From contig NZ_JQEZ01000001.1 of the NCBI RefSeq assembly GCF_000743705.1, positions 922,070-986,069 of the forward strand: a stretch of DNA of 64,000 nucleotides, written 5' to 3'. Made by a program: the position numbers and the translations under genes. This document shows, piece by piece, positions 4,009 through 19,144 of the stretch. The notes below the pieces were generated by a model. It did no database searches. It was not told the origin of the DNA and saw only the letters and a list, made by a program, of their open reading frames with translations. This DNA comes from Ruegeria halocynthiae. GTDB lineage: Bacteria; Pseudomonadota; Alphaproteobacteria; Rhodobacterales; Rhodobacteraceae. The stretch's first letter is position 1; every line of letters starts with the position of its first letter.

Positions 4009-4932
4009 TCAGTCGTAGGACCAGATCCCCTGCCCCAAAGCTTCGATCCCGACCGAGATCCTCTCAAAGCTGTCGGCCGCGCGTTTCACTGTCGTACGGG
4101 CGCGCAGATAGCCATGAACAAGGCCGGGCTCATTGATCCAATGGGCCTGTCCGCCTGCTGCGGTGATCTTGTTGCAATAGGCTGACCCGTCGTCCCGCAA
4201 AGGGTCGCAATCCGCCGTCACCACAACCGTGGGCGGCAGATTGGAAAAATCCGTGTCGTGCAGCGGCGCAAAGCTGGGATCGTTTTCCGGAACCGGGCCG
4301 CCACTGCGCAATTTCTCATAGAACAGGATATCATCCAGTGTCAAAAGCGGCGCATGGGCGTGTTCCACGTATGATCCCTGCGATGTGTCGCCGCCCAAGC
4401 CCGGATAGATCAGAACCTGACCCAGCACATTATCCAGACGTCCACGCGCGTGATGTGCCACTGCAGTTGCCAGGTTACCCCCAGCACTGTCGCCTGCCAG
4501 AATCAAAGGGTCGCCAAATTCCACTGCGGCCCAGGTTGTCGCTGTCCAGGCGTCCTGAAACTGTGCCGGGTGCAGATGTTCCGGGCACAGACGATAATCG
4601 ACCGAGACGATCCGATACCCGGTCTGCGCGCAAATCTCGGCACAGACATCATCGTGGCTGTCCAGCCCCCCGACAACAAAACCGCCGCCATGAAAATAGA
4701 CAACGGTCCGCGTTGGATCACCGGCAGAATAGACCCGGACAGGCACGCCATCGGCGGGCCTGTCCTGCGTTTCCACACCTGCGGGTCGAGGTTGGCGAAA
4801 GCTCTGACACATTGCGTCATACACCCGCCGCTGATCATCGACTGACAGATCGACCGCATCGTCGGGGTAACTTTCAGCCGTTCGTCTTATGAACGCCCAT
4901 GTCTCTTCGTCGATCAGACGTTCATAATCCAT
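4009..4932 (-). CDS. Alpha/beta hydrolase, HSL family (esterase/lipase-like)
   Basis: 307 aa. Oxyanion-hole motif FHGGGF (HGGG at 81-84), nucleophile Ser149 in GDSAGGN, and the likely rest of the triad, Asp243 (DCDPLRDDG) and His273 (LVHGYL), define a hormone-sensitive-lipase-type carboxylesterase. No signal peptide, so it acts on intracellular short-chain or aromatic esters. The SD AGGAGGTGAT is nearly perfect and begins at the stop codon of the upstream acyl-CoA synthetase, so the two are co-transcribed and coupled. The pairing suggests a catabolic route in which an ester or thioester is released and CoA-activated; this is inference. Confidence 0.85.
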   Translation of the reverse strand: MDYERLIDEETWAFIRRTAESYPDDAVDLSVDDQRRVYDAMCQSFRQPRPAGVETQDRPADGVPVRVYSAGDPTRTVVYFHGGGFVVGGLDSHDDVCAEICAQTGYRIVSVDYRLCPEHLHPAQFQDAWTATTWAAVEFGDPLILAGDSAGGNLATAVAHHARGRLDNVLGQVLIYPGLGGDTSQGSYVEHAHAPLLTLDDILFYEKLRSGGPVPENDPSFAPLHDTDFSNLPPTVVVTADCDPLRDDGSAYCNKITAAGGQAHWINEPGLVHGYLRARTTVKRAADSFERISVGIEALGQGIWSYD

Positions 4933-9152: not shown

Positions 9153-10289
9153 TTACTGGGCCGCTGAAAGCCAGGCACATGATTGGAGGTCAGCCGACAC
9201 CCGGATCATCGAATTGAAATTGAGTTGTGACGCGCCGGGCAAACCTATCAACTGCGCAGGATAGGTTGTGGCGGCAAACAGCGCATCCTGTAGCGGCACA
9301 CCGACCTGATGAACCAACACCCGCAACGCGGTTGTCAGGTCAAGATCGGCCCCGGCCAGCGTCCCGTCTTCCAGGGTTAGCCGCCCGTCGGTTCGGGTGA
9401 TCCGGCGGCCTTCCAACCGGAATTCGGTTTGCTCTGTGCCCGCCACGGCCATGGCGTCGCTGACCAAAAATATCCGCCCCGGCTGGGTTTTGGCGGCCCA
9501 CGCGGCCCGCATCACTTCGGGGTGGACGTGGATGCCATCGGCGATCAAACCCGCCGACAAGCCGCCATTGGCAAGCGCTGCGCCGACCACGCCCGGCTCT
9601 CGGTTTCCAAGCTGGCTCATGGCGTTGAACAGATGGGTTACACAGCGCGCGCCTGCCTCGGCGTACCGCTGGCAGGTGGCAAAGTCCGCATCGCTGTGCC
9701 CCAATGAAATCAGGATTCCGGCATCGGCAAGCGTCTTAACCTGCTGTTCCGAAACCGCCTCGGGGGCGATGGTGACCTTGAGGCACGGCAGTTCACTTGC
9801 TGCCGCGATCAGTGCGGTCAGATCCGCATCTTCCATGGGTCGGATCAGCGCCGCGTCATGGGCCCCCTTGCGGGCAACCGACAGATGCGGCCCCTCAAGA
9901 TGCAGGCCCGCCACACCGGGCACGCCTTGGCGCACCGCCTGTATCGCGGCCTTTATCGCCGCCTGTGTTTTTTCTGCCGTGTCGGTGATCAGCGTGGGCA
10001 ACAGGGACGCCACCCCCAATCGGCGGTGCGCGCTGGTGATCCGGCGGATCGTCTCAACCGACGGATCATCGTTGAACATGACGCCGTCGCCGCCGTTGAC
10101 CTGCAGGTCAACGTAACCGGGGCTGAGGATGTCCCCGTTCAGGTCAATCACCCGCCCTTCGGTCGGCAACTCGGATTCAGGCAGGATTTCGGCCGATGCG
10201 CCATCGCGAAAGAGGATCGCGCGGCCATACAGCAAACGCGCGCCGTCAAAGACGGGTCCGTTCCGAAATGCTACCGTGCCTGTGGTCAT
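9153..10289 (-). CDS. nagA: N-acetylglucosamine-6-phosphate deacetylase
   Basis: 378 aa. Hydrolyses GlcNAc-6-P to glucosamine-6-P and acetate in the cytosol. It carries the NagA signatures GYVDLQVNGGDGVMFND, the metal-binding Glu in HLEGPHL, LGHSDADF, HLFNAMSQLGNREPG and the catalytic Asp in LVSDAMAVAGT. The start overlaps the stop of the upstream SIS-domain gene by 4 bp, placing it as the last gene of the leftward amino-sugar operon (kinase, gntR, deaminase, nagA). It links the kinase/MurQ product GlcNAc-6-P to the SIS deaminase. Confidence 0.95.
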   Translation of the reverse strand: MTTGTVAFRNGPVFDGARLLYGRAILFRDGASAEILPESELPTEGRVIDLNGDILSPGYVDLQVNGGDGVMFNDDPSVETIRRITSAHRRLGVASLLPTLITDTAEKTQAAIKAAIQAVRQGVPGVAGLHLEGPHLSVARKGAHDAALIRPMEDADLTALIAAASELPCLKVTIAPEAVSEQQVKTLADAGILISLGHSDADFATCQRYAEAGARCVTHLFNAMSQLGNREPGVVGAALANGGLSAGLIADGIHVHPEVMRAAWAAKTQPGRIFLVSDAMAVAGTEQTEFRLEGRRITRTDGRLTLEDGTLAGADLDLTTALRVLVHQVGVPLQDALFAATTYPAQLIGLPGASQLNFNSMIRVSADLQSCAWLSAAQ

Positions 10290-11314
10290 ACGGTCTCCGT
10301 CACTTTTTTCAGATGCCGAGGGGCGTCCGGGTCGATGCCCCGGCTGCGCGCCACGGCCTCAATCATGCTGTAGAACGAGGTGATAACGCTGATCGGGTCC
10401 GTCAGCCAGTGATCGGTGCGCGTCACCGGCAGGCTGTGCGCGCGCGCCACCTTGTCCGTCGCAGCGAACACCGTCGCGCCCTTGTCCGCCAGCGCATCCG
10501 CAGCTTCGGCAGTGGCCTGTTCTGCGGCGTCACGGGCGGCAAAAACAATCGTTGGAAATCCTTCCTCAACGATTGAGACCGGCCCATGCAGAACCTCAGC
10601 CGCCGAATAGCTTTCGGCGTGAATCTGGCAGGTTTCCTTGATCTTCAATGCCGCTTCGCAGGACATCGCATAAGACGGCCCGCGCCCTAGCGTAAACAAC
10701 GACCTGCCGGTAATCGTTTCAGCCGCTGCCGACCAGTCACATTGCGCCGCCTGTTTCAGGTGGTTGGGTAAAGTATGAAGGGTTTTGCTAAGTTCGACGT
10801 CCCCCTTGATTTCCGCCAGCAACCAAAGCCCGGCCACCAGAGAGGTGACAAAGGTCTTGGTGGCGGCCACACTCAGCTCTGGCCCGGCGTGCAGGGGCAA
10901 CACCGCATCGGCGGCATCGGCCAAGGGTGACCCCGTGGCGTTGGTAATCGCAACCGTCACCGCGCCCGAGGATTTCAGGGATCGCGTCATACCCACGATG
11001 TCCGGGCTTTGCCCTGACTGAGACACCGAAAGGCATAAGGCCCCCCTTGCCTTTAGATCAACGCCATAGATCGAACTGACCGACGGCCCGACCGAGGCGA
11101 CGGGTAGGTTCATCAGCAGCTCACTGGCGTATTTCAGATAGGTGCAGGCGTGGTCGGATGACCCCCGCGCCACCGAGATCAGAAACTGCGGGTCCGCGTC
11201 CCGCACCTTGCTTGCCGCCTGCTGAATGTTGGCAGCACCCTGGGTCAGTAATCTTTCAACGGCATCGGGTATCTCAAGGACCTCCTGACGCATCTTCGAA
11301 CTGTGTTCCGTCAT
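10286..11314 (-). CDS. SIS-domain glucosamine-6-phosphate deaminase-type protein (NagB-II/AgaS-like)
   Basis: 342 aa with two tandem SIS (sugar isomerase) domains, as in the isomerase half of GlmS but lacking the glutaminase domain. Visible are SVARGSSDHACTYLKY, SVSQSGQSPDIVG and PELSVAATKTFVTSL. In proteobacteria this architecture replaces classical NagB and converts glucosamine-6-P to fructose-6-P and ammonia. The ATG at 11314 is preferred because the longer frame would run into the gntR coding end. It is co-transcribed with gntR (19 bp) and nagA (4-bp overlap). GlmS-like isomerase activity remains an alternative, but context favours degradation. Confidence 0.88.
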   Translation of the reverse strand: MTEHSSKMRQEVLEIPDAVERLLTQGAANIQQAASKVRDADPQFLISVARGSSDHACTYLKYASELLMNLPVASVGPSVSSIYGVDLKARGALCLSVSQSGQSPDIVGMTRSLKSSGAVTVAITNATGSPLADAADAVLPLHAGPELSVAATKTFVTSLVAGLWLLAEIKGDVELSKTLHTLPNHLKQAAQCDWSAAAETITGRSLFTLGRGPSYAMSCEAALKIKETCQIHAESYSAAEVLHGPVSIVEEGFPTIVFAARDAAEQATAEAADALADKGATVFAATDKVARAHSLPVTRTDHWLTDPISVITSFYSMIEAVARSRGIDPDAPRHLKKVTETV

Positions 11315-11333
11315 GAACTTCCGGCCTTTCCGG

Positions 11334-12083
11334 TTACAACCGCAATTCGGCGACAAAATCGTAGGCGTCACCGCGATATAGCGACCGGGTCAGTTCGGCG
11401 ACCCGCCCGTTTTTGAGGAAGGAGACACGCTCGATATTTAGTCCGGCGGCCCCTTCTGGTACATCCAGAAGCTCGGCCTCGCGCGCCGCTAGGTTAAGCG
11501 CCGAAATCTTCTGCACCGCGCGCACCGGACGCCTGCCCAGACCATCCAGAACTTCATACAACGAGGTGGTCACCTCGATCGGGTTCGGCAGGATGTCCAA
11601 CGGCAGGGCAGCGCGTTCCAGCGCCAAGGGGCGGCCGTTCGCCTCGCGCAAGCGGTAGATGCGGGAAATCTGCTCTCCATCCGACAGGCTCAGCGCCTTT
11701 ACCTCTTGGGCGGTTGGGGCAAATACCCCACGCTCCAACCATTTGGACGTGGTTTGCATCCCCCGGCTCGCCATATCCTCAGTGAATGAGGTCAGATGCT
11801 TTAGCGATTGCTCGACGCGCGGCATCCGTTCGCGAATGAAAGACCCCGACCCCTGACGCTGTTCGATCACACCTTCCTGAACAAGCTCCTGAATGGCCTT
11901 CCGTACCGTGACGCGTGACAGATCCGTAATTTCGACCAGTTCACGCTCCGATGGCAGCGACGCATTTGGGGCAAGCACACCGGTGTCGATCCCCTCTTGC
12001 AACCTACGCCGCAACTGGACGTATCGCGGACCATTTTCCGGTGTCAGCCACAAGTCGGCGCGCAGGAATTCAGTGATGCTCAT
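11334..12083 (-). CDS. GntR-family regulator with UTRA domain, amino-sugar operon repressor candidate
   Basis: 249 aa. The N-terminal winged helix-turn-helix includes SERELVEITDLSRVTVRKAI and QRQGSGSFI. The C-terminal half is a UTRA effector domain, which in NagR/DasR-type proteins binds phosphorylated amino sugars. The start overlaps the kinase stop by 14 bp. It is encoded inside the operon it most likely controls. The probable operators are the paired GGTATT repeats at 12949-12965 and 13070-13086, placed on the promoters of both divergent operons. Confidence 0.9.
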   Translation of the reverse strand: MSITEFLRADLWLTPENGPRYVQLRRRLQEGIDTGVLAPNASLPSERELVEITDLSRVTVRKAIQELVQEGVIEQRQGSGSFIRERMPRVEQSLKHLTSFTEDMASRGMQTTSKWLERGVFAPTAQEVKALSLSDGEQISRIYRLREANGRPLALERAALPLDILPNPIEVTTSLYEVLDGLGRRPVRAVQKISALNLAAREAELLDVPEGAAGLNIERVSFLKNGRVAELTRSLYRGDAYDFVAELRL

Positions 12084-12945
12084 GCCGGACCTCCGCTGCC
12101 AACGCCAGCGCCCCTGTCAGCGGCTCACCCAAGGGTGGGCGGATGGCGGATTGCATATCGGTAGGCAGGTAATCTGCGTATTGCATCGCAATGCCCCCCG
12201 TCAGGCAAATCGCCTTGCCAGCCTGCCAACCCAGTTGTTTTGCGATACCCGCGATATAGTCGGCCCCAGCCCGCATGATCAGCTGGGCGACCTGATCACC
12301 AGACCGGGCCGCCGCAGTCACATCCGGCGCAAGCGCCCCGAACTGGGCGGGTGTCGCAGCACCCGCAAAGCGCACGATACCAGCCGGGCCATGCAGGTCC
12401 GCCAACAGTTTCTGCGTCAGTCCGGTGTCGACTTGCGTGCCATCATATGCGCAAAGCGCCGCAGACAACGCGCGCCGCCCGACCCACTGGGCCGATGCCT
12501 CATCCCCAAGAACCGATCCCCAGCCCCCGGCAAACCGCATCACACCATCCTGCTGCGCTGCAAGGAAAGATCCGGTGCCGCAATGCGCAATCACGCCGTC
12601 CTGCGCACCAAGGGCCCCACGCAATGCCGCAGGGCGGTCATCTTCTATCCGCGCGTTCGTCAGCCCCAACGCGGCCCGCAGGCGATCCGCCATCCGCGCA
12701 TCGGTTACACCGGCCAGCCCGACGAAAGCGGGCCATTTGATCATGTCCCGAACCTTGACGCCAAGCACACCGGCCAAGTCTTCAATCCCAGCTTTGATCT
12801 GAACAAGCGCGCCATCAAAATCGGTCGAAACATTGGCCGCACCCGTTTCGACACTATGAAAGGTGTCGCCAATCCTACAGGCAACGCGGCAGCGCGTTCC
12901 ACCGCCATCCACAGCCATTACAGCGCTGATCCGAGACTCAGTCAT
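12070..12945 (-). CDS. BadF/BadG-type N-acetylglucosamine (or MurNAc) kinase
   Basis: 291 aa, ASKHA-fold kinase of the BadF/BadG/BcrA/BcrD family. The phosphate-binding loops AVDGGGTRCRVAC (start) and IAHCGTGSFLAAQQ are clear. It phosphorylates imported GlcNAc and/or MurNAc at O6; members of this family include dual GlcNAc/MurNAc kinases. First gene of the leftward operon. The frame is open to 13287, but only the ATG at 12945 gives a normal kinase N-terminus. That ATG has no SD and follows a perfect TATAAT (12955-12960) by 9 bp, so the mRNA may be leaderless. Confidence 0.85.
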   Translation of the reverse strand: MTESRISAVMAVDGGGTRCRVACRIGDTFHSVETGAANVSTDFDGALVQIKAGIEDLAGVLGVKVRDMIKWPAFVGLAGVTDARMADRLRAALGLTNARIEDDRPAALRGALGAQDGVIAHCGTGSFLAAQQDGVMRFAGGWGSVLGDEASAQWVGRRALSAALCAYDGTQVDTGLTQKLLADLHGPAGIVRFAGAATPAQFGALAPDVTAAARSGDQVAQLIMRAGADYIAGIAKQLGWQAGKAICLTGGIAMQYADYLPTDMQSAIRPPLGEPLTGALALAAEVRHEHH

Positions 12946-12948
12946 GAC

Positions 12949-12965
12949 AATACCATTATAATACC
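12949..12965 (-). promoter_or_regulatory. Paired GGTATT operator and -10 box of the leftward amino-sugar operon
   Basis: On the minus strand two GGTATT hexamers lie exactly 11 bp apart (12960-12965 and 12949-12954), one helical turn. A perfect TATAAT (12955-12960) lies between and across them. The start codon follows 3 bp later. This fits a repressor site on the promoter; GntR binding is inferred. Confidence 0.55.
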
Positions 12966-13060
12966 TTTTCTCACTGCGAAAGCCTGAAATCACCAGAGTT
13001 GATGAAAAAATTCGCCCTAAAACGAAAAATACGACCACCAAGACCAGTATAATAAATTTG

Positions 13061-13088
13061 TAGACAAGTGGTATTGAATAGGTATTGT
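13061..13088 (+). promoter_or_regulatory. Promoter and paired GGTATT operator of the murQ-ABC operon
   Basis: TAGACA (13061-13066) and TATTGT (13083-13088) are spaced 16 bp and fit -35 and -10 boxes. Two GGTATT hexamers, 13070-13075 and 13081-13086, are 11 bp apart and fill the spacer and -10. This is a mirror image of the pair in front of the kinase. Occupancy by the GntR protein would block both operons. Confidence 0.55.
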
Positions 13089-13117
13089 ATCGGGAACACC
13101 TGGGAGGGGAGATTCTT

Positions 13118-14005
13118 TTGACGCTGCCGTCAACCGAACAACTGCATGACGCCTCGGCCATTCTGGACCGAAGCGATCTGACCGCTTCGGCGCAGGCCCT
13201 GGTCGAGGGGCAGATTGCCGCCGCAACATCGGTTCGTGCCGCATTGGGCGCCATCGCGGATGGGGCCAAAGCGATGGCCAGCACCATACGCTCGGGCGGG
13301 GTTCTGCACTATGTGGCGGCCGGGTCTTCCGGCCTGATGGCGGCGGCGGATGCGCAAGAGCTGGGTGGCACCTTCTCAATCTCTCCCTCTCAATTAAAGA
13401 TACACATGGCAGGCGGCCTGCCGACCGGGGTCGAAATGCCCGGCGGGGCCGAGGATGCCGCCGGTGACCTTGCCCAGGCACTTAGTTCACTACAGGCGCG
13501 GGACACGGTGGTTGCGGTGTCAGCCAGCGGCTCGACCCCGTACACGCTGACCGGGAGCGAAATCGCGCGCGCATCCGGCGCAACCATTCTCGGGATCGCC
13601 AACAACGCGGACAGCCCGCTGTTATTGGGCGCAGATATCCCGATCTTGCTGGCCACCCCGCCCGAGCTAATCTCGGGGTCGACACGCATGGGCGCGGGCA
13701 CAGCGCAGAAGATCGCCCTGAACATGCTGTCATCGCTGATGGCGCTGGAGCTTGGCCATGTACATGGCGGGATGATGGTAAATCTGCGGGCTGACAATGA
13801 AAAACTACGCGCCCGCGCAACCGGCATTGTCGCCCGTATCGCCAATGTTGACGCGGACGCCGCGCAACACGCGCTGGATGCCGCCAACGGGGACGTGAAG
13901 CCTGCGGTTCTGATCGCGGCGCGCGGCCTGTCCCTGACGGATGCGGCAGCGCGGCTGCGCGCGACCGGGGGAATTCTGAACAAGGCATTGGAAACAGAGA
14001 CATAA
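13118..14005 (+). CDS. murQ: N-acetylmuramic acid 6-phosphate etherase-like protein (MurQ)
   Basis: 295 aa, usual MurQ length. Cleaves the lactyl ether of MurNAc-6-P to give GlcNAc-6-P and D-lactate. SIS-fold signatures are AAGSSGLMAAADAQELGG, VSASGSTPY, PELISGSTRMGAGTAQK and GHVHGGMMVNL. The two glutamates implicated in MurQ catalysis appear as E81 and E112, with the same 31-residue spacing as I recall for E. coli (83/114). The TTG at 13118 is chosen because GGGAGGGGAG sits 6 nt upstream; the earlier TTG at 13085 has no SD and overlaps the -10. The N-terminus is divergent, so activity on a related phospho-amino-sugar is possible. Confidence 0.85.
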   Translation: MTLPSTEQLHDASAILDRSDLTASAQALVEGQIAAATSVRAALGAIADGAKAMASTIRSGGVLHYVAAGSSGLMAAADAQELGGTFSISPSQLKIHMAGGLPTGVEMPGGAEDAAGDLAQALSSLQARDTVVAVSASGSTPYTLTGSEIARASGATILGIANNADSPLLLGADIPILLATPPELISGSTRMGAGTAQKIALNMLSSLMALELGHVHGGMMVNLRADNEKLRARATGIVARIANVDADAAQHALDAANGDVKPAVLIAARGLSLTDAAARLRATGGILNKALETET

Positions 14006-14030
14006 CTACGAACCAACTGGGAGAATGAAA

Positions 14031-15284
14031 ATGACACGCAGAAGCCTGAAACTGGCCTTACTTGGCACCACCCTGATGGCGACAACCGCATACGCCGAAG
14101 ATGTGACGCTGACGATCGAAAGTTGGCGCAACGATGACCTGACCCTGTGGCAGGATCAGATCATCCCCGCATTCGAAGCGAAACACCCCGGGATCAAGAT
14201 CAATTTCACCCCGTCCGCCCCGGCGGAATATAATGCCGTTCTGAATTCAAAGCTGGATGCGGGTTCAGCCGGCGATTTGATCACCTGCCGCCCGTTCGAT
14301 GCGTCATTGGCGCTGTATGAGGCCGGGCATCTGACCGACCTGTCCGGGGTCGAGGCAATGGGCAACTTCTCGGACGTGGCCAAATCGGCCTGGCAGACCG
14401 ATGATGGTTCGGCCAGCTTCTGCGTTCCGATGGCCTCGGTGATCCATGGCTTCATCTACAACAAGGACGCCTTTGCCGAATTGGGTATCGAGGCCCCGAC
14501 AACCGAGGATGAATTCTTTGCCGCGCTCGACAAGATCCGCGAAGACGGCACTTATGTCCCGATGGCCATGGGCACCAACGACCAGTGGGAAGCCGCCACG
14601 ATGGGTTACAACAACATTGGCCCTAACTACTGGAAAGGCGAAGAAGGTCGCCAGGCGCTGATCGCGGGCGAACAGAAGCTGACAGATGAGGCCTGGACCG
14701 CGCCCTACGCCACTTTGGCTCGCTGGGGCGAGTATCTGGGCGACGGGTACGAGGCACAGACCTATCCCGACAGCCAGAACATCTTTACCCTCGGCCGCGC
14801 TGCGATCTACCCGGCGGGGTCTTGGGAAATCTCGGGCTTTAACGCGCAGGCCGATTTTGAGATGGGCGCGTTCAAGCCGCCGGTGCAGAACGCTGGCGAC
14901 ACCTGCTATATCTCGGATCACACTGACATCGGCATCGGCATGAACGCCGCAACCGAGCACCCCGAAGCGGCCGAGACATTCCTGGCCTGGGTCGCCAGCC
15001 CGGAATTCGCCGAGATCTTCGGCAACGCCCTGCCCGGATTCTTCCCGCTGTCTGACACGCCGGTCGATCTGCAAGACCCGCTGGCGAAAGAGTTTGTCGG
15101 CTGGCGTGGCGAATGTGAATCCACCATCCGCTCGACCTATCAGATCCTGTCGCGCGGCACGCCGAACCTGGAAAACGATACCTGGGGCGCATCTGTGGCG
15201 GCCATCAAGGGCACCAGCACCCCGGCCGAACTGGGTGCCGAACTGCAGGAAGGTCTGGCGTCATGGTACGCGCCGCATCAATAA
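14031..15284 (+). CDS. ABC transporter sugar-binding protein (CUT1 family)
   Basis: 417 aa periplasmic solute-binding protein of the carbohydrate uptake 1 type. The signal peptide spans about residues 1-22 (basic MTRRSLK, hydrophobic core, cleavage after TAYA). The mature part begins with the family pattern VTLTIESWRNDDLTLWQDQI. The ATG at 14031 has GGGAGA at 6 nt; the ATG at 14025 abuts the SD and is less likely. It lies between murQ and its permeases, so the ligand is most likely GlcNAc, a chito-oligosaccharide or MurNAc. A 10-bp hairpin follows the gene. Confidence 0.92.
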   Translation: MTRRSLKLALLGTTLMATTAYAEDVTLTIESWRNDDLTLWQDQIIPAFEAKHPGIKINFTPSAPAEYNAVLNSKLDAGSAGDLITCRPFDASLALYEAGHLTDLSGVEAMGNFSDVAKSAWQTDDGSASFCVPMASVIHGFIYNKDAFAELGIEAPTTEDEFFAALDKIREDGTYVPMAMGTNDQWEAATMGYNNIGPNYWKGEEGRQALIAGEQKLTDEAWTAPYATLARWGEYLGDGYEAQTYPDSQNIFTLGRAAIYPAGSWEISGFNAQADFEMGAFKPPVQNAGDTCYISDHTDIGIGMNAATEHPEAAETFLAWVASPEFAEIFGNALPGFFPLSDTPVDLQDPLAKEFVGWRGECESTIRSTYQILSRGTPNLENDTWGASVAAIKGTSTPAELGAELQEGLASWYAPHQ

Positions 15285-15300
15285 TCATCTGATCGAACCC

Positions 15301-15328
15301 TATCCGGGCGGCGTGGATCGCCCGGATA
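15301..15328 (+). other. Intercistronic hairpin after the binding-protein gene
   Basis: A perfect 10-bp stem (15301-15310 with 15319-15328) with an 8-nt loop lies 16 bp after the binding-protein stop and has no T-run. Such hairpins protect the upstream mRNA and raise binding-protein expression over permeases in other sugar operons; here that role is inferred. Confidence 0.6.
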
Positions 15329-15356
15329 ATCCCGACACCCCATTGAAAGCAATCCC

Positions 15357-16271
15357 ATGAACCGCCCCCGCATCCGCTGGCATATCGTCGTGTTCCTTGC
15401 ACCGGCTGTTCTTGTTTATACGGCGGTGATGATTTTCCCGCTGTTCAACACGCTGCGTCTGGCGCTGTTCACCGAGGTTGACCAGACCCGCGTGTTTGTC
15501 GGGTTGCAAAACTTTCGGACCCTGTTCTTCGATCCGATCTGGTCAGAACAATTCTGGAATGCGCTGGGGAACAACTTTTGGTTTTTTCTGATTCATATGC
15601 TGGTGCAGAACCCCATCGGCATCGCCTTGGCCGCGCTTCTCAGCCACCCGCGCCTGCGGTTTGCCGCGCTGTATCGGTCGGCGATCTTCATTCCCACCAT
15701 CCTGAGCTTTGTGATCGTTGGCTTTGCCTGGAAACTGATCCTGTCGCCGATCTGGGGCATCGCACCATCTATGCTGGACGCCATCGGGTTGAAATCACTG
15801 TTCGCGCCTTGGCTGGGGAAAGAGGAATATGCCCTGACGACGCTGGCGCTGATCTCGGTCTGGCAGTTTGTCGGCATCCCGATGATGCTGATCTATGCGG
15901 CCCTGCTGACCATCCCCGAAGAAATTCTGGAAGCGGGTGAGATTGACGGGATCACCGGTGCCTCGGCGTTCTGGAAGATCAAGCTGCCGCTGATCCTGCC
16001 GTCGATCGGCATCATCTCGATCCTGACCTTTGTGGGTAATTTCAACGCGTTCGACCTGATCTATGCGTCACAGGGCGCGCTGGCCGGCCCGGATTTCTCG
16101 ACCGACATTTTGGGCACGTTCATGTACCGCACGTTCTTTGGTTTCCAGTTGCAACTGGGTGATCCGCACATGGGATCGGCCATTGCTGGGGCGATGTTCG
16201 CCATCATCCTAGTGGGCGTGTGTATCTACCTGTTTGGCATCCAGACCCGGATGCGCCGGTATCAGCTATGA
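15357..16271 (+). CDS. Sugar ABC transporter permease 1 (CUT1, MalF-like)
   Basis: 304 aa inner-membrane permease with six hydrophobic helices, starting IVVFLAPAVLVYTAVMIFPLF. The EAA loop is EEILEAGEIDGITGASAFWK, followed by KLPLILPSIGI. It forms a heterodimer with the next permease and docks on the ATPase at 18149. It lies 72 bp after the binding-protein gene, with the hairpin between, and 10 bp before permease 2. Weak SD (GAAAGCAA). Confidence 0.93.
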   Translation: MNRPRIRWHIVVFLAPAVLVYTAVMIFPLFNTLRLALFTEVDQTRVFVGLQNFRTLFFDPIWSEQFWNALGNNFWFFLIHMLVQNPIGIALAALLSHPRLRFAALYRSAIFIPTILSFVIVGFAWKLILSPIWGIAPSMLDAIGLKSLFAPWLGKEEYALTTLALISVWQFVGIPMMLIYAALLTIPEEILEAGEIDGITGASAFWKIKLPLILPSIGIISILTFVGNFNAFDLIYASQGALAGPDFSTDILGTFMYRTFFGFQLQLGDPHMGSAIAGAMFAIILVGVCIYLFGIQTRMRRYQL

Positions 16272-16281
16272 GGGCCACGTG

Positions 16282-17121
16282 ATGAACAAAGCACGCCAAA
16301 ACCCGTTCAACGTCGTCGCCATGCACGGCGCGTTGATCCTGTACACGCTGGTCGCGTTGTTTCCAGTGTTTGTGATCCTGATCAACAGTTTCAAAACACG
16401 GCGCGCAATCTTTCGGGAACCACTGGCCCTGCCCAACGCAGACAGCTTTTCGCTGATCGGATACCAGACGGTGATGAAGCAGGGCGATTTTTTCCTGTAC
16501 TTCCAGAACTCGATGATCGTCACGGTCGCGTCGCTGTTCTTTATCCTGCTGTTTGGCGCGATGGCTGCCTATGCGCTGTCCGAATATCAGTTTCGGGGCA
16601 ATCTGCTGATGGGCCTGTATCTGGCATTGGGCATCATGATCCCGATCCGCATCGGGACAGTGGCGATCCTCGAGATGATGGTGGCGACCGGGCTAGTGAA
16701 TACCCTGTGGGCATTGATCCTGGTCTATACGGCCCAAGGCTTACCGCTGGCAGTGTTCATCCTTTCGGAATTCATGCGACAAGTCAGCGACGACCTGAAG
16801 AACGCCGGGCGCATTGACGGGCTGTCGGAATACACGATCTTTTTCCGCCTAGTGCTGCCTTTGGTCCGCCCTGCCATGGCCACTGTGGCGGTGTTCAACA
16901 TGATCCCGATCTGGAACGATCTGTGGTTCCCACTGATCCTGGCCCCGGCAGAAGAGACCAAGACGCTGACTCTGGGCAGCCAGGTCTTCATCGGTCAGTT
17001 CGTCACTGACTGGAATGCGGTGCTGTCTGCCCTTTCCATGGCGATCCTGCCAGTCCTGATCCTGTACATCATCTTTTCGCGCCAGCTTATTCGCGGCATC
17101 ACATCCGGAGCAGTGAAATGA
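16282..17121 (+). CDS. Sugar ABC transporter permease 2 (CUT1, MalG-like)
   Basis: 279 aa, the usual MalG-class length. It opens with MNKARQNPFNVVAMHGALIL, and the EAA loop is DDLKNAGRIDGLSEYTIFFR followed by LVLPLVRPAM. The frame extends upstream into permease 1, but the ATG at 16282 (or GTG at 16279), 10 bp after its stop, is the sensible start, with GAGGG upstream. Its stop overlaps the start of the oxidoreductase gene (ATGA at 17118). Confidence 0.93.
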   Translation: MNKARQNPFNVVAMHGALILYTLVALFPVFVILINSFKTRRAIFREPLALPNADSFSLIGYQTVMKQGDFFLYFQNSMIVTVASLFFILLFGAMAAYALSEYQFRGNLLMGLYLALGIMIPIRIGTVAILEMMVATGLVNTLWALILVYTAQGLPLAVFILSEFMRQVSDDLKNAGRIDGLSEYTIFFRLVLPLVRPAMATVAVFNMIPIWNDLWFPLILAPAEETKTLTLGSQVFIGQFVTDWNAVLSALSMAILPVLILYIIFSRQLIRGITSGAVK

Positions 17122-18148
17122 CCCGTGTTCTGATCGCAGGCCTTGGCAATATGGGGTTGAGCCACGCGTTGGCCCATCACCATCACCCCGATGCGCAGAT
17201 CGTTGGGCTGGTGAACCGATCCGGGCAAGTAGACCATCCGGAGCTGGCAGATTACCCGGCCTATTCGGACTTTGAAACGGCGCTGGCCGAGACCAAGCCT
17301 GATCTGGTCGTGATCGCCACCTATTCCGACAGCCATGCCGATTATGCCTGTGCCGCGATGGAGGCGGGTGCCCATGTTTTTGTCGAAAAACCTCTGGCCA
17401 CCAATGTTGTTGATGCGCGCCGCGTGGTTGCGGCGGCCAAGCGGCTGAATCGCAAGCTGGTCGTCGGCTATATCCTGCGCCACCACCCGTCATGGGTGCG
17501 GTTGATTGATGAGGCGCGCAATCTGGGCGGACCTTATGTGTTTCGGCTGAACCTGAACCAGCAATCTTCGGGCGCGGAATGGGAAACACACAAGGCGCTG
17601 ATGCAGACGACTTCTCCGATTGTCGATTGCGGCGTGCATTACGTCGACGTGATGTGCCAGATCACCGATGCGCAGCCCGTTCGCGTACACGGAATGGGCC
17701 TGCGCCTGTCGGACGAAATCGCCGAAGACATGTATAACTATGGCCAGTTTCAGGTGGTATTCGCCGACGGCTCGGTCGGGTGGTATGAGGCGGGCTGGGG
17801 CCCGATGATGTCCGAAACCGCGTTCTTTGTGAAAGATATCGTGTCGCCAAACGGCTCGGTCTCCATCACCGATGGGAACAAGGGTGCATCGTCCGACATC
17901 GACGGCCACACCAAAGTGGGCGGGCTTTCGATTCACACCTCGCAAGGCGACCGAACCATCGAGATGCCGGATGAGCCCGGCCATCAGGACCTGTGCAACG
18001 CCGAGCAGGCATTCATGCTGCGTACCATCACCAACGATATCGACCTGACCCGTCACATGAACGACGCGGTTCAATCCCTCGCCATTTGTCTGGCCGCGGA
18101 TCAAAGCATCCGCACCGGCCAACCCGTTTCCCTTGAGGAGCCCGCGCC

Positions 18149-18152
<4 letters not shown>
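17118..18152 (+). CDS. Gfo/Idh/MocA-family NAD(P)-dependent sugar oxidoreductase
   Basis: 344 aa. The N-terminal Rossmann fold starts VLIAGLGNMGLSHALAHHHH. The family's catalytic Lys lies in HVFVEKPLATNVV near residue 95. The C-terminal alpha/beta substrate domain has the HYVDVM segment. These enzymes oxidise or epimerise sugars at a ring hydroxyl. It is locked between permease and ATPase by 4-bp overlaps at both ends, so it belongs to the amino-sugar uptake unit. No known GlcNAc/MurNAc route requires such an enzyme, so it hints at an extra or different substrate. Confidence 0.9.

Positions 18153-19144
<992 letters not shown>

What the first reader, a model, noticed from the sequence alone, without database searches (positions are those of the whole stretch)
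12946..13117. Mirror-image paired GGTATT operators on the divergent amino-sugar promoters
Four GGTATT hexamers lie in the intergenic region: 12949-12954 and 12960-12965 on the minus strand, 13070-13075 and 13081-13086 on the plus strand. In each pair the spacing is exactly 11 bp and the 20-bp blocks match at about 15 positions. Each pair overlaps a promoter (TATAAT on the left; TAGACA-N16-TATTGT on the right). Direct repeats one helical turn apart are unlike the short dyad usual for GntR/UTRA regulators, and the two sites about 120 bp apart could loop.
Basis: partly seen in the sequence, partly recalled or inferred. Interest (0 to 1): 0.6.

Follow-up and report, generated by a model that had tools for sequence, protein, structure and literature searches.

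The report
Helically phased NagQ repressor DNA loop
Two mirror-image binding sites for an amino-sugar repressor sit on back-to-back promoters, and across many related bacteria they stay a whole number of DNA turns apart on DNA patterned to bend, as expected if the repressor ties them into a loop that shuts both gene sets.

Summary
The four GGTATT boxes are real and at the stated places. The motif is not new: direct repeats of TGGTATT are the published site of NagQ, the GntR/HutC regulator of N-acetylglucosamine use, and the encoded regulator (GntR+UTRA, in a nagK-nagQ-nagB-nagA cluster) fits NagQ. What appears new is the loop geometry. Over 137 distinct intergenic spacers from related bacteria, the distance between the mirror-image operators falls mostly near 92, 102, 112, 122, 134 and 144 bp; 133 of 137 lie within 2.1 bp of a 10.5-bp lattice, with at least 29 class changes on a NagK tree of 117. 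The spacer letters are not conserved, but AAA/TTT triplets favour one helical face and G/C triplets the face half a turn away, at the same phase from both operators. Five K-side operators without a partner in reach lack the pattern. A fixed -35/operator register excludes a repeat-register artefact. Best reading: NagQ on both operators occludes both promoters and bridges them in a small loop whose DNA is selected for helical phase and bendability. Binding, bridging and effector are untested. Static curvature from a wedge model is modest, and not raised for the window's own spacer.

The parts
12949..12965 (-). K-side operator (K-op) GGTATT-ATAAT-GGTATT, contains the -10 of the nagK promoter
   Evidence: consensus GGTATTaTAaaGGTATt over 117 spacers, nine of the twelve box positions at 1.8-2.0 bits (sites were selected as near matches)
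13070..13086 (+). Q-side operator (Q-op) GGTATT-GAATA-GGTATT, between -35 and -10 of the murQ promoter
   Evidence: consensus GGTATT..AtAGGTATt
12966..13069 (.). 104-bp spacer between the operators (proposed loop DNA); AAA/TTT triplets mostly, not all, at the common 10.5-bp phase
   Evidence: window tracts at 2, 3, 15, 23, 41-44, 55-56, 61-63, 90, 93 bp upstream of K-op; group result
12955..12960 (-). -10 element TATAAT of the nagK promoter
   Evidence: sequence; conserved inside K-op
12977..12982 (-). -35 region CTTTCG of the nagK promoter (N16 to TATAAT)
   Evidence: CTT at this register in 96 of 117 spacers (summed)
13061..13066 (+). -35 element TAGACA of the murQ promoter
   Evidence: register conserved in 111 of 117 spacers
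13083..13088 (+). -10 element TATTGT of the murQ promoter
   Evidence: sequence, N16 from -35
12070..12945 (-). nagK: BadF/BadG-type N-acetylglucosamine kinase (ATG 3 nt after K-op, nearly leaderless by inference)
   Evidence: Pfam BadF/BadG above cut-off; NagK model matched below its cut-off; start offset
11334..12083 (-). nagQ: GntR/HutC (UTRA) regulator, proposed ligand of the operators
10286..11371 (-). NagB-II-like glucosamine-6-P deaminase ORF (start codon not fixed)
   Evidence: model matched below its cut-off
9153..10289 (-). nagA: GlcNAc-6-P deacetylase
   Evidence: TIGR00221 above cut-off
13118..14005 (+). murQ-like N-acetylmuramic acid 6-P etherase (probable TTG start at 13118 behind GGGAGGGGAG; ORF opens at 13085)
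   Evidence: subfamily model above cut-off
14025..19144 (+). sugar ABC transporter (binding protein 14025-15284, two ORFs read as permeases by position, ATPase 18149-19144) and Gfo/Idh/MocA oxidoreductase 17118-18152
   Evidence: the two permease ORFs were not scanned

Best explanation
The paired GGTATT repeats are two NagQ operators, one in each of the divergent promoters of an amino-sugar divergon (nagK-nagQ-nagB-nagA to one side, murQ-ABC transporter to the other). NagQ bound at each site covers the -10/-35 region (inferred). Proteins on the two mirror-image sites touch each other and close the intervening DNA into a small loop (inferred), so both promoters are held off together until an amino-sugar phosphate releases NagQ (effector by analogy with NagR/YvoA, recalled). 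Selection keeps the sites a whole number of helical turns apart and keeps A/T-rich triplets mostly on one face and G/C-rich triplets on the other through the loop; both patterns are shown by comparison, and their purpose, easing the loop, is inferred.
For: Known motif: NagQ direct repeats TGGTATT. Regulator type and context: GntR+UTRA, nag genes on both sides. Spacing: exact four-core pattern in 57 of 390 genomes of the order at d 97-127, with nothing at 97-99, 105-110, 115-120 or 125-127 in that search and 0 in the reversed-pattern control (further ranges); 115 of 117 distinct spacers within 2.1 bp of the lattice 112.4+10.5n, R=0.825 at 10.5 bp, best period 10.4; 20 further spacers, all within 2.9 bp. 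At least 29 changes of turn class on a NagK tree. Neutral indel simulations on the tree: 0 of 3000 for mean indels 1.5, 3 and 6; four mixtures 7, 0, 0 and 2 of 3000. A-tract autocorrelation score 1.14 in 94 thinned spacers against 500 shuffles with maximum 0.40 and 132 A/T-rich control windows at 0.13; tract phase 0.96 bp (K) and 0.59 bp (Q) upstream of the operator starts, 73 of 77 spacers in phase; G/C triplets antiphase at 6.5; repeated in the 20 new spacers, R 0.59, 0 of 1000 shuffles. Five operators without a partner in reach have 0,0,0,0,1 in-phase tracts against a mean of 4.4 (and 1.1 out of phase) in 81 loop loci. In-phase tract clusters rise with loop class, except the single +4 locus.
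Against: No binding, footprint or looping data. One neutral model (few indels of mean size 10) reaches the observed phasing in 62 of 3000 runs. The wedge-model curvature is modest (55.9 against 44.8 degrees in controls), and the window's own spacer is not more curved than its shuffles. A-tracts near promoters can also serve RNA polymerase (recalled). The five partnerless loci are few and three look related. Two of 117 spacers are off the lattice (73 and 96 bp). The paper on the nearest solved relative, NagR, does not use the word tetramer, so the bridging contact is unknown.
Confidence: 0.74

Rival explanations
1. Each NagQ site acts alone on its own promoter; the helical phasing and A-tracts serve RNA polymerase (UP elements bound by alpha-CTD) or the back-to-back fit of two polymerases.
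For: Operators lie at a fixed register in each promoter, so operator phasing and promoter phasing cannot be fully separated; tracts lie about 40, 50 and 60 bp upstream of the inferred nagK start (my arithmetic), the place of UP elements (recalled).
Against: Tract phase is nearly the same from both operators (0.96 and 0.59 bp) but differs by 2.9 bp between the two inferred starts. Tracts run across the whole spacer, also far from each promoter. Five nagK promoters with K-op but no partner site in reach lack the tracts.
Confidence: 0.14
2. The patterned spacer is a site for another protein (HU, IHF, an activator) and NagQ does not bridge.
For: In the gal loop a bend by HU at the apex is part of the mechanism (PMC4693257, passages); HU has no strong motif (recalled) and could not be excluded here.
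Against: Beyond about 35 bp from either operator no spacer position exceeds 0.6 bits; an IHF-like sequence is in 0 of 117. A single central protein does not by itself explain spacing in whole-turn steps from about 91 to 145 bp.
Confidence: 0.08
3. Shared ancestry: a few ancestral spacer lengths inherited by many species mimic a lattice.
For: One neutral model (mean indel 10) reaches the observed R in 62 of 3000 runs; only a quick NagK gene tree was used, no species tree.
Against: At least 29 class changes and 61 value changes on the tree; mixtures give at most 7 of 3000; the A-tract phase is a second signal in spacers thinned to under 10% shared 8-mers.
Confidence: 0.04

Closest known systems
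NagQ operators (Yang 2006, not seen; as cited by Suvorova 2015 PMC4494728 and treated by Leyn 2016 PMC5343134; passages)
   Same: Direct (tandem) repeats, TGGTATT, bound by a GntR/HutC regulator of GlcNAc genes in alpha-, beta- and some gammaproteobacteria
   Different: The passages I saw do not describe paired mirror-image sites, helical phasing or loop DNA for NagQ; supplements were not readable
E. coli NagC loop between nagE and nagB (recalled; a phrase of the loop paper's title is in 11 held papers, search listing only)
   Same: Divergent amino-sugar operons, one operator per promoter, repression loop
   Different: NagC is a ROK-family protein (family label also in the table of PMC5343134), unrelated to GntR; details recalled, not tested here
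E. coli GalR repressosome, 113-bp loop of 11 turns (PMC4693257, passages)
   Same: Loop length close to the commonest class here (112-113 bp); two operators, antiparallel loop
   Different: LacI-type regulator with palindromic operators (recalled); uses HU at the apex; here the spacer itself carries a bending pattern
Atu1419, tetrameric looping GntR regulator (PMC7797058, passages)
   Same: GntR-type protein seen by electron microscopy to loop two sites 190 bp apart
   Different: FCD/VanR effector domain, 10-bp palindromes, tetramer; NagQ has a UTRA domain and direct repeats
NanR on (GGTATA)3 (PMC8012715, abstract and passages)
   Same: GntR-type repressor on direct GGTAT-type repeats; N-terminal extension gives cooperativity
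   Different: A different GntR subfamily (recalled), tight array of three repeats; no paired distant array in the passages seen
NagR/YvoA (PDB 2wv0, 4u0v, 4wwc; PMC4333415, passages)
   Same: Closest solved relative by sequence (E 3.8e-38), HutC subfamily, GlcNAc regulator
   Different: Binds palindromic or near-palindromic dre-sites, not direct repeats

Membership tests
NagQ regulon (GntR/HutC) | GntR DNA-binding domain plus UTRA domain | tested here: met
   PF00392 and PF07702 above cut-offs
NagQ regulon (GntR/HutC) | Operator is a direct repeat of TGGTATT | tested here: met
   GGTATT repeats in the window and relatives; motif from PMC4494728. The base before a box is T or A, not always T
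NagQ regulon (GntR/HutC) | Sites lie before nag catabolic and uptake genes | tested here: met
   nagK, nagB-II-like, nagA, murQ-like, ABC transporter
NagQ regulon (GntR/HutC) | Orthology of the regulator with named NagQ proteins | not tested
   no named NagQ sequence was compared
NagQ regulon (GntR/HutC) | Protein binds the repeats; effector releases it | not testable with these tools
   needs bench work
DasR/NagR dre-site | Palindromic GGT...ACC operator | tested here: not met
   no inverted ACC box in either window operator or in the consensus of the relatives, which were selected as direct repeats
NanR (GGTATA)3 operator | Three tight repeats of GGTATA | tested here: not met
   two GGTATT boxes 11 bp apart; a degenerate third box GGTAGA precedes Q-op in 50 of 117
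DNA repression loop | Two operators at whole-turn spacing | tested here: met
DNA repression loop | Repressor physically bridges the sites | not testable with these tools
   needs footprinting, EM or 3C

The most novel reading that the evidence does not exclude
A loop conserved by shape and not by letters: in Rhodobacteraceae the DNA between two NagQ operators evolves freely in sequence but almost only in whole helical turns, and turn after turn keeps A/T triplets on one face and G/C triplets on the other, so that a HutC-type GntR repressor closes a small loop on pre-patterned DNA, bridging perhaps through its conserved N-terminal FLxPxxW helix.
Probability: 0.6. Interest if true: 0.72.

Novelty: new variant of a known kind. 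Interest (0 to 1): 0.62.

Why it matters
Repression loops are known from a limited number of model operons, often shown by inserting DNA at the bench (recalled). Here 137 natural spacers form an evolutionary insertion series: whole-turn changes are kept and half-turn changes are almost absent. That would let one read from genomes alone that a repressor loops, estimate the helical repeat that matters in cells (best fits 10.4-10.6 bp here), and see selection on loop DNA mechanics, a question usually studied with synthetic spacers. It also suggests that unrelated regulators (NagC in E. coli, recalled, and NagQ here) reached the same solution for divergent amino-sugar genes.

Tried and rejected
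Repeat-register artefact: because boxes recur every 11 bp (a third weak box GGTAGA before Q-op in 50 of 117), a wrong choice of box could fake 11-bp steps. Rejected for the main set: the -35 GA stays at its register before Q-op in 111 of 117 spacers, including 110 of the 111 in classes -1 to +3 apart from one and three misses in classes -1 and 0 (11 of 12, 48 of 51, 36 of 36, 9 of 9, 3 of 3), and the four-core searches need exact GGTAT. Not excluded for single rows such as L208, where 102 and 113 score alike.

Dropped or doubtful rows: the hits G160:C4 and G225:C9 looked coding and were left out; one search found no K-op plus nagK for either (L131, L133). The G002 hit (91 bp) was counted, but one search shows that it is not beside nagK (L137). 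For G021, with three boxes, one search counted 113 and not 124. In the 117 set K-op matches without mismatch in 94 and Q-op in 111 (summed); L054 (91 bp) has a poor K-op. The partnerless set L029, L040, L032, L082, L176 was chosen by hand: L056/L057 were left out because a two-mismatch Q-op lies at 102, L200 because it appears to be the L082 contig again, and L217, L229, L231 and L248 because their K-op matches are poor and 15-74 nt from a start.

Static curvature: the wedge model (parameters recalled) gave only a modest excess, and none for the window itself, so I speak of a bending pattern and not of strongly curved DNA.

Wider distribution: in 385 alphaproteobacterial genomes the four-core pattern at d 97-127 was found in 3, all of the window's own family; 0 of 380 outside it. 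Locus L067, titled Roseibium, has the arrangement at d 102, so it is not strictly confined to one genus group.

IHF-like site: 0 of 117. An AlphaFold model of NagQ (mean pLDDT 86.2) shows a short N-terminal helix at residues 3-8; a single chain says nothing on bridging, so I ran no fold search. Literature: ten searches used; none lists a report of helical phasing or looping by NagQ, but most subscription papers and all supplements are outside this.

Full report
What is there. The intergenic region 12946-13117 holds GGTATT-N5-GGTATT twice, on the minus strand at 12949-12965 and on the plus strand at 13070-13086. The exact pattern occurs three times in the 4.31-Mb genome, two of them here. The left site (K-op) contains the -10 TATAAT of the promoter for nagK-nagQ-nagB-nagA; the right site (Q-op) lies in the gap between TAGACA and TATTGT and overlaps the latter, in the promoter for murQ and an ABC transporter. 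Gene names rest: a GntR+UTRA regulator; a BadF-type kinase whose only NCBIfam match is a GlcNAc kinase model, below its cut-off; a NagB-II-like enzyme, best match also below its cut-off; NagA above its cut-off; and a MurQ-like etherase (subfamily model above its cut-off).

The motif is known. Suvorova et al. 2015 (PMC4494728, passages) list NagQ as a HutC-subfamily exception that binds direct repeats TGGTATT, citing their reference 30; Leyn et al. 2016 (PMC5343134, passages) state that the NagQ motif is a tandem repeat and that NagQ occurs in alpha-, beta- and some gammaproteobacteria. I did not compare it with a named NagQ sequence. The closest solved relatives by sequence are NagR/YvoA and DasR.

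Conservation of both sites. 80 loci with relatives of the regulator were fetched, the best 80 of 566. Together with the window and 68 loci from whole-genome searches, 149 sequences were examined; 140 have a K-op-like site (up to 2 mismatches) 1-5 nt before a nagK start, 136 of these also a Q-op (up to 1 mismatch), with 119 distinct spacers. In a wider search (start from -6 to +90) on the window and 80 loci, nagK was recognised after K-op in 62 of 81 rows and its first start lay 2-4 nt after K-op in 61 of them, L070 with a two-mismatch site being the exception. Of the 19 rows missed there, one search shows 12 more with a near-exact site 2-3 nt before a long ORF, mostly missed for a narrow protein pattern. 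So nagK is nearly leaderless if the -10 is as read.

Spacing goes in whole turns. With a pattern of four exact GGTAT cores in mirror orientation, 57 of 390 genomes of the order matched at start-to-start distance d 97-127, 9 of 390 at 128-158 (two of them chance hits) and 3 of 390 at 66-96 (one of them not beside nagK). In one search values fall at 100-104, 111-114 and 121-124, with nothing at 97-99, 105-110, 115-120 or 125-127; add 133-134, 144-145, 91 and 73. The reversed-pattern control found nothing in these three searches. Among the 119 distinct spacers, two are very long (432 and 661 bp); of the other 117, 115 lie within 2.1 bp of 112.4+10.5n, constants chosen after seeing the data. The exceptions are 73 and 96 bp; the 73-bp locus also lacks the -35. 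The best period is 10.4 bp with R 0.827. NagK was found in 218 of 390 genomes, in a capped list; I fetched 85 more upstream regions from the listed matches not already held. Of these, 28 had both sites, 6 only a K-op-like match (most of them poor) and 51 none. After dropping 5 duplicates and 3 rows with nagK far from the site, 20 new spacers gave d 92, 99, 101 (2), 102 (5), 104, 110-114 (8), 122 and 166, all within 2.9 bp of the lattice; three of the 102s look like close relatives with a weak Q-op, and the L208 choice (102 or 113) is ambiguous. In all, 133 of 137 are within 2.1 bp and 136 of 137 within 3.1 bp.

Relatedness. On a FastTree NagK tree of the 117 loci the turn class changes at least 29 times and the exact value 61 times. 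Neutral indel simulations on this tree, roughly matched to the observed variance, reached the observed R in 0 of 3000 runs for mean indels of 1.5, 3 and 6 bp and in 62 of 3000 for mean 10; four mixtures of small and large indels, which make fewer value changes than observed, gave 7, 0, 0 and 2 of 3000.

The spacer is patterned, not conserved. Beyond about 35 bp from either operator no spacer position exceeds 0.6 bits. Yet in 94 spacers thinned (from 116) to less than 10% shared 8-mers, AAA/TTT triplets are spaced at 10-11, 20-22 and 30-31 bp and avoid 5, 15-16 and 25-26; the score is 1.14 against -0.005 (sd 0.13, maximum 0.40) in 500 dinucleotide shuffles and 0.13 (bootstrap maximum 0.33) in 132 A/T-rich windows from the same loci, which are somewhat more A/T-rich than the spacers. 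Their phase is 0.96 bp upstream of K-op start (95% interval 0.75-1.16) and 0.59 bp upstream of Q-op start (0.32-0.88) modulo 10.5, with R 0.57 and 0.53. G/C triplets sit at phase 6.5, about half a turn away. In 73 of 77 spacers with two or more tracts the phase agrees within 2.6 bp. The 20 new spacers repeat the result: 72 tracts, R 0.59, phase 1.14, 0 of 1000 shuffles. The number of in-phase clusters grows with loop class from 1.7 (n 3) to 5.5 (n 2); the single longest locus has 2. Five loci that have K-op but no Q-op in reach (L029, L040, L032, L082, L176; how chosen is told under Tried and rejected) have 0,0,0,0,1 in-phase and 0,0,1,0,0 out-of-phase tracts, against means of 4.4 and 1.1 in 81 loop loci; L029, L040 and L032 look related, L032 reads N in part, and L082 and L176 are G+C-rich there. 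Upstream regions of 51 nagK genes without K-op score 0.32.

Meaning. A/T steps on one face with G/C steps half a turn out is a pattern known from DNA that wraps easily (PMC3795714, introduction passages), and the same passages say that phased A-tracts have been studied at length in DNA looping. A wedge model gave 55.9 degrees for loop spacers against 44.8 for 189 control windows (p 1e-6), but for the window's own spacer less than its shuffles. I therefore claim a conserved bending pattern, not strong static curvature. The phase being nearly equal from both operators (difference 0.4 bp) but 2.9 bp different from the two inferred starts, and its absence in the five loci without a partner operator, favour looping between operators over an RNA polymerase contact. 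This is inference; no protein was tested.

How it would work. NagQ on K-op covers the nagK -10; on Q-op it fills the -35/-10 gap. Contact across the loop would make repression of both operons cooperative and, because nagQ lies in the nagK operon, autoregulated. By analogy with NagR, GlcNAc-6-P may release it (recalled and inferred). The contact is unknown: NagQ has a conserved N-terminal segment, F6 L7 W12 in at least 90% of 41 sequences, modelled as a short helix; an N-terminal extension mediates cooperativity in NanR (PMC8012715, passages). GntR-type looping has been seen for the tetrameric Atu1419 (PMC7797058, passages).

Place among known systems. As a motif this is a NagQ operator. As a mechanism it resembles the gal loop (113 bp, PMC4693257, passages) and the NagC loop of E. 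coli (recalled). New, as far as ten searches of an open-licence library show, are the natural whole-turn series and the letter-free bending pattern of a NagQ loop.

Noticed in passing
window 12943-12965: nagK starts 2-4 nt after K-op in 61 of the 62 rows where nagK was recognised, with the -10 inside the operator: a conserved, probably nearly leaderless nagK message.
   Followed up: partly
L029 and L040, upstream of nagK: The two operators are 661 and 432 bp apart and the phased tracts near K-op are missing; something seems to have been inserted between the promoters.
   Followed up: partly
window 13059-13064 and relatives: A degenerate third box GGTAGA 11 bp before Q-op, overlapping the -35, in 50 of 117 spacers; the window has TGTAGA there by my reading. 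L052 and G021 have three boxes.
   Followed up: partly
L079 (SAR324 MAG), 4728-4882: Two minus-strand GGTATT pairs before a relative of the regulator outside the usual divergon; may mark another arrangement or a transferred copy.
   Followed up: no
L072, 61 bp before the regulator match: A single exact repeat pair directly upstream of the nagQ-like gene and no K-op found before a nagK: perhaps a rewired autoregulatory site.
   Followed up: partly
NagQ residues 1-16: Conserved N-terminal segment FLxPxxW before the winged helix, modelled as a short helix; candidate contact for dimer-dimer bridging.
   Followed up: partly
window, whole: GGTATT occurs 21 times against 11 expected in shuffles; only four of these are explained here.
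   Followed up: no
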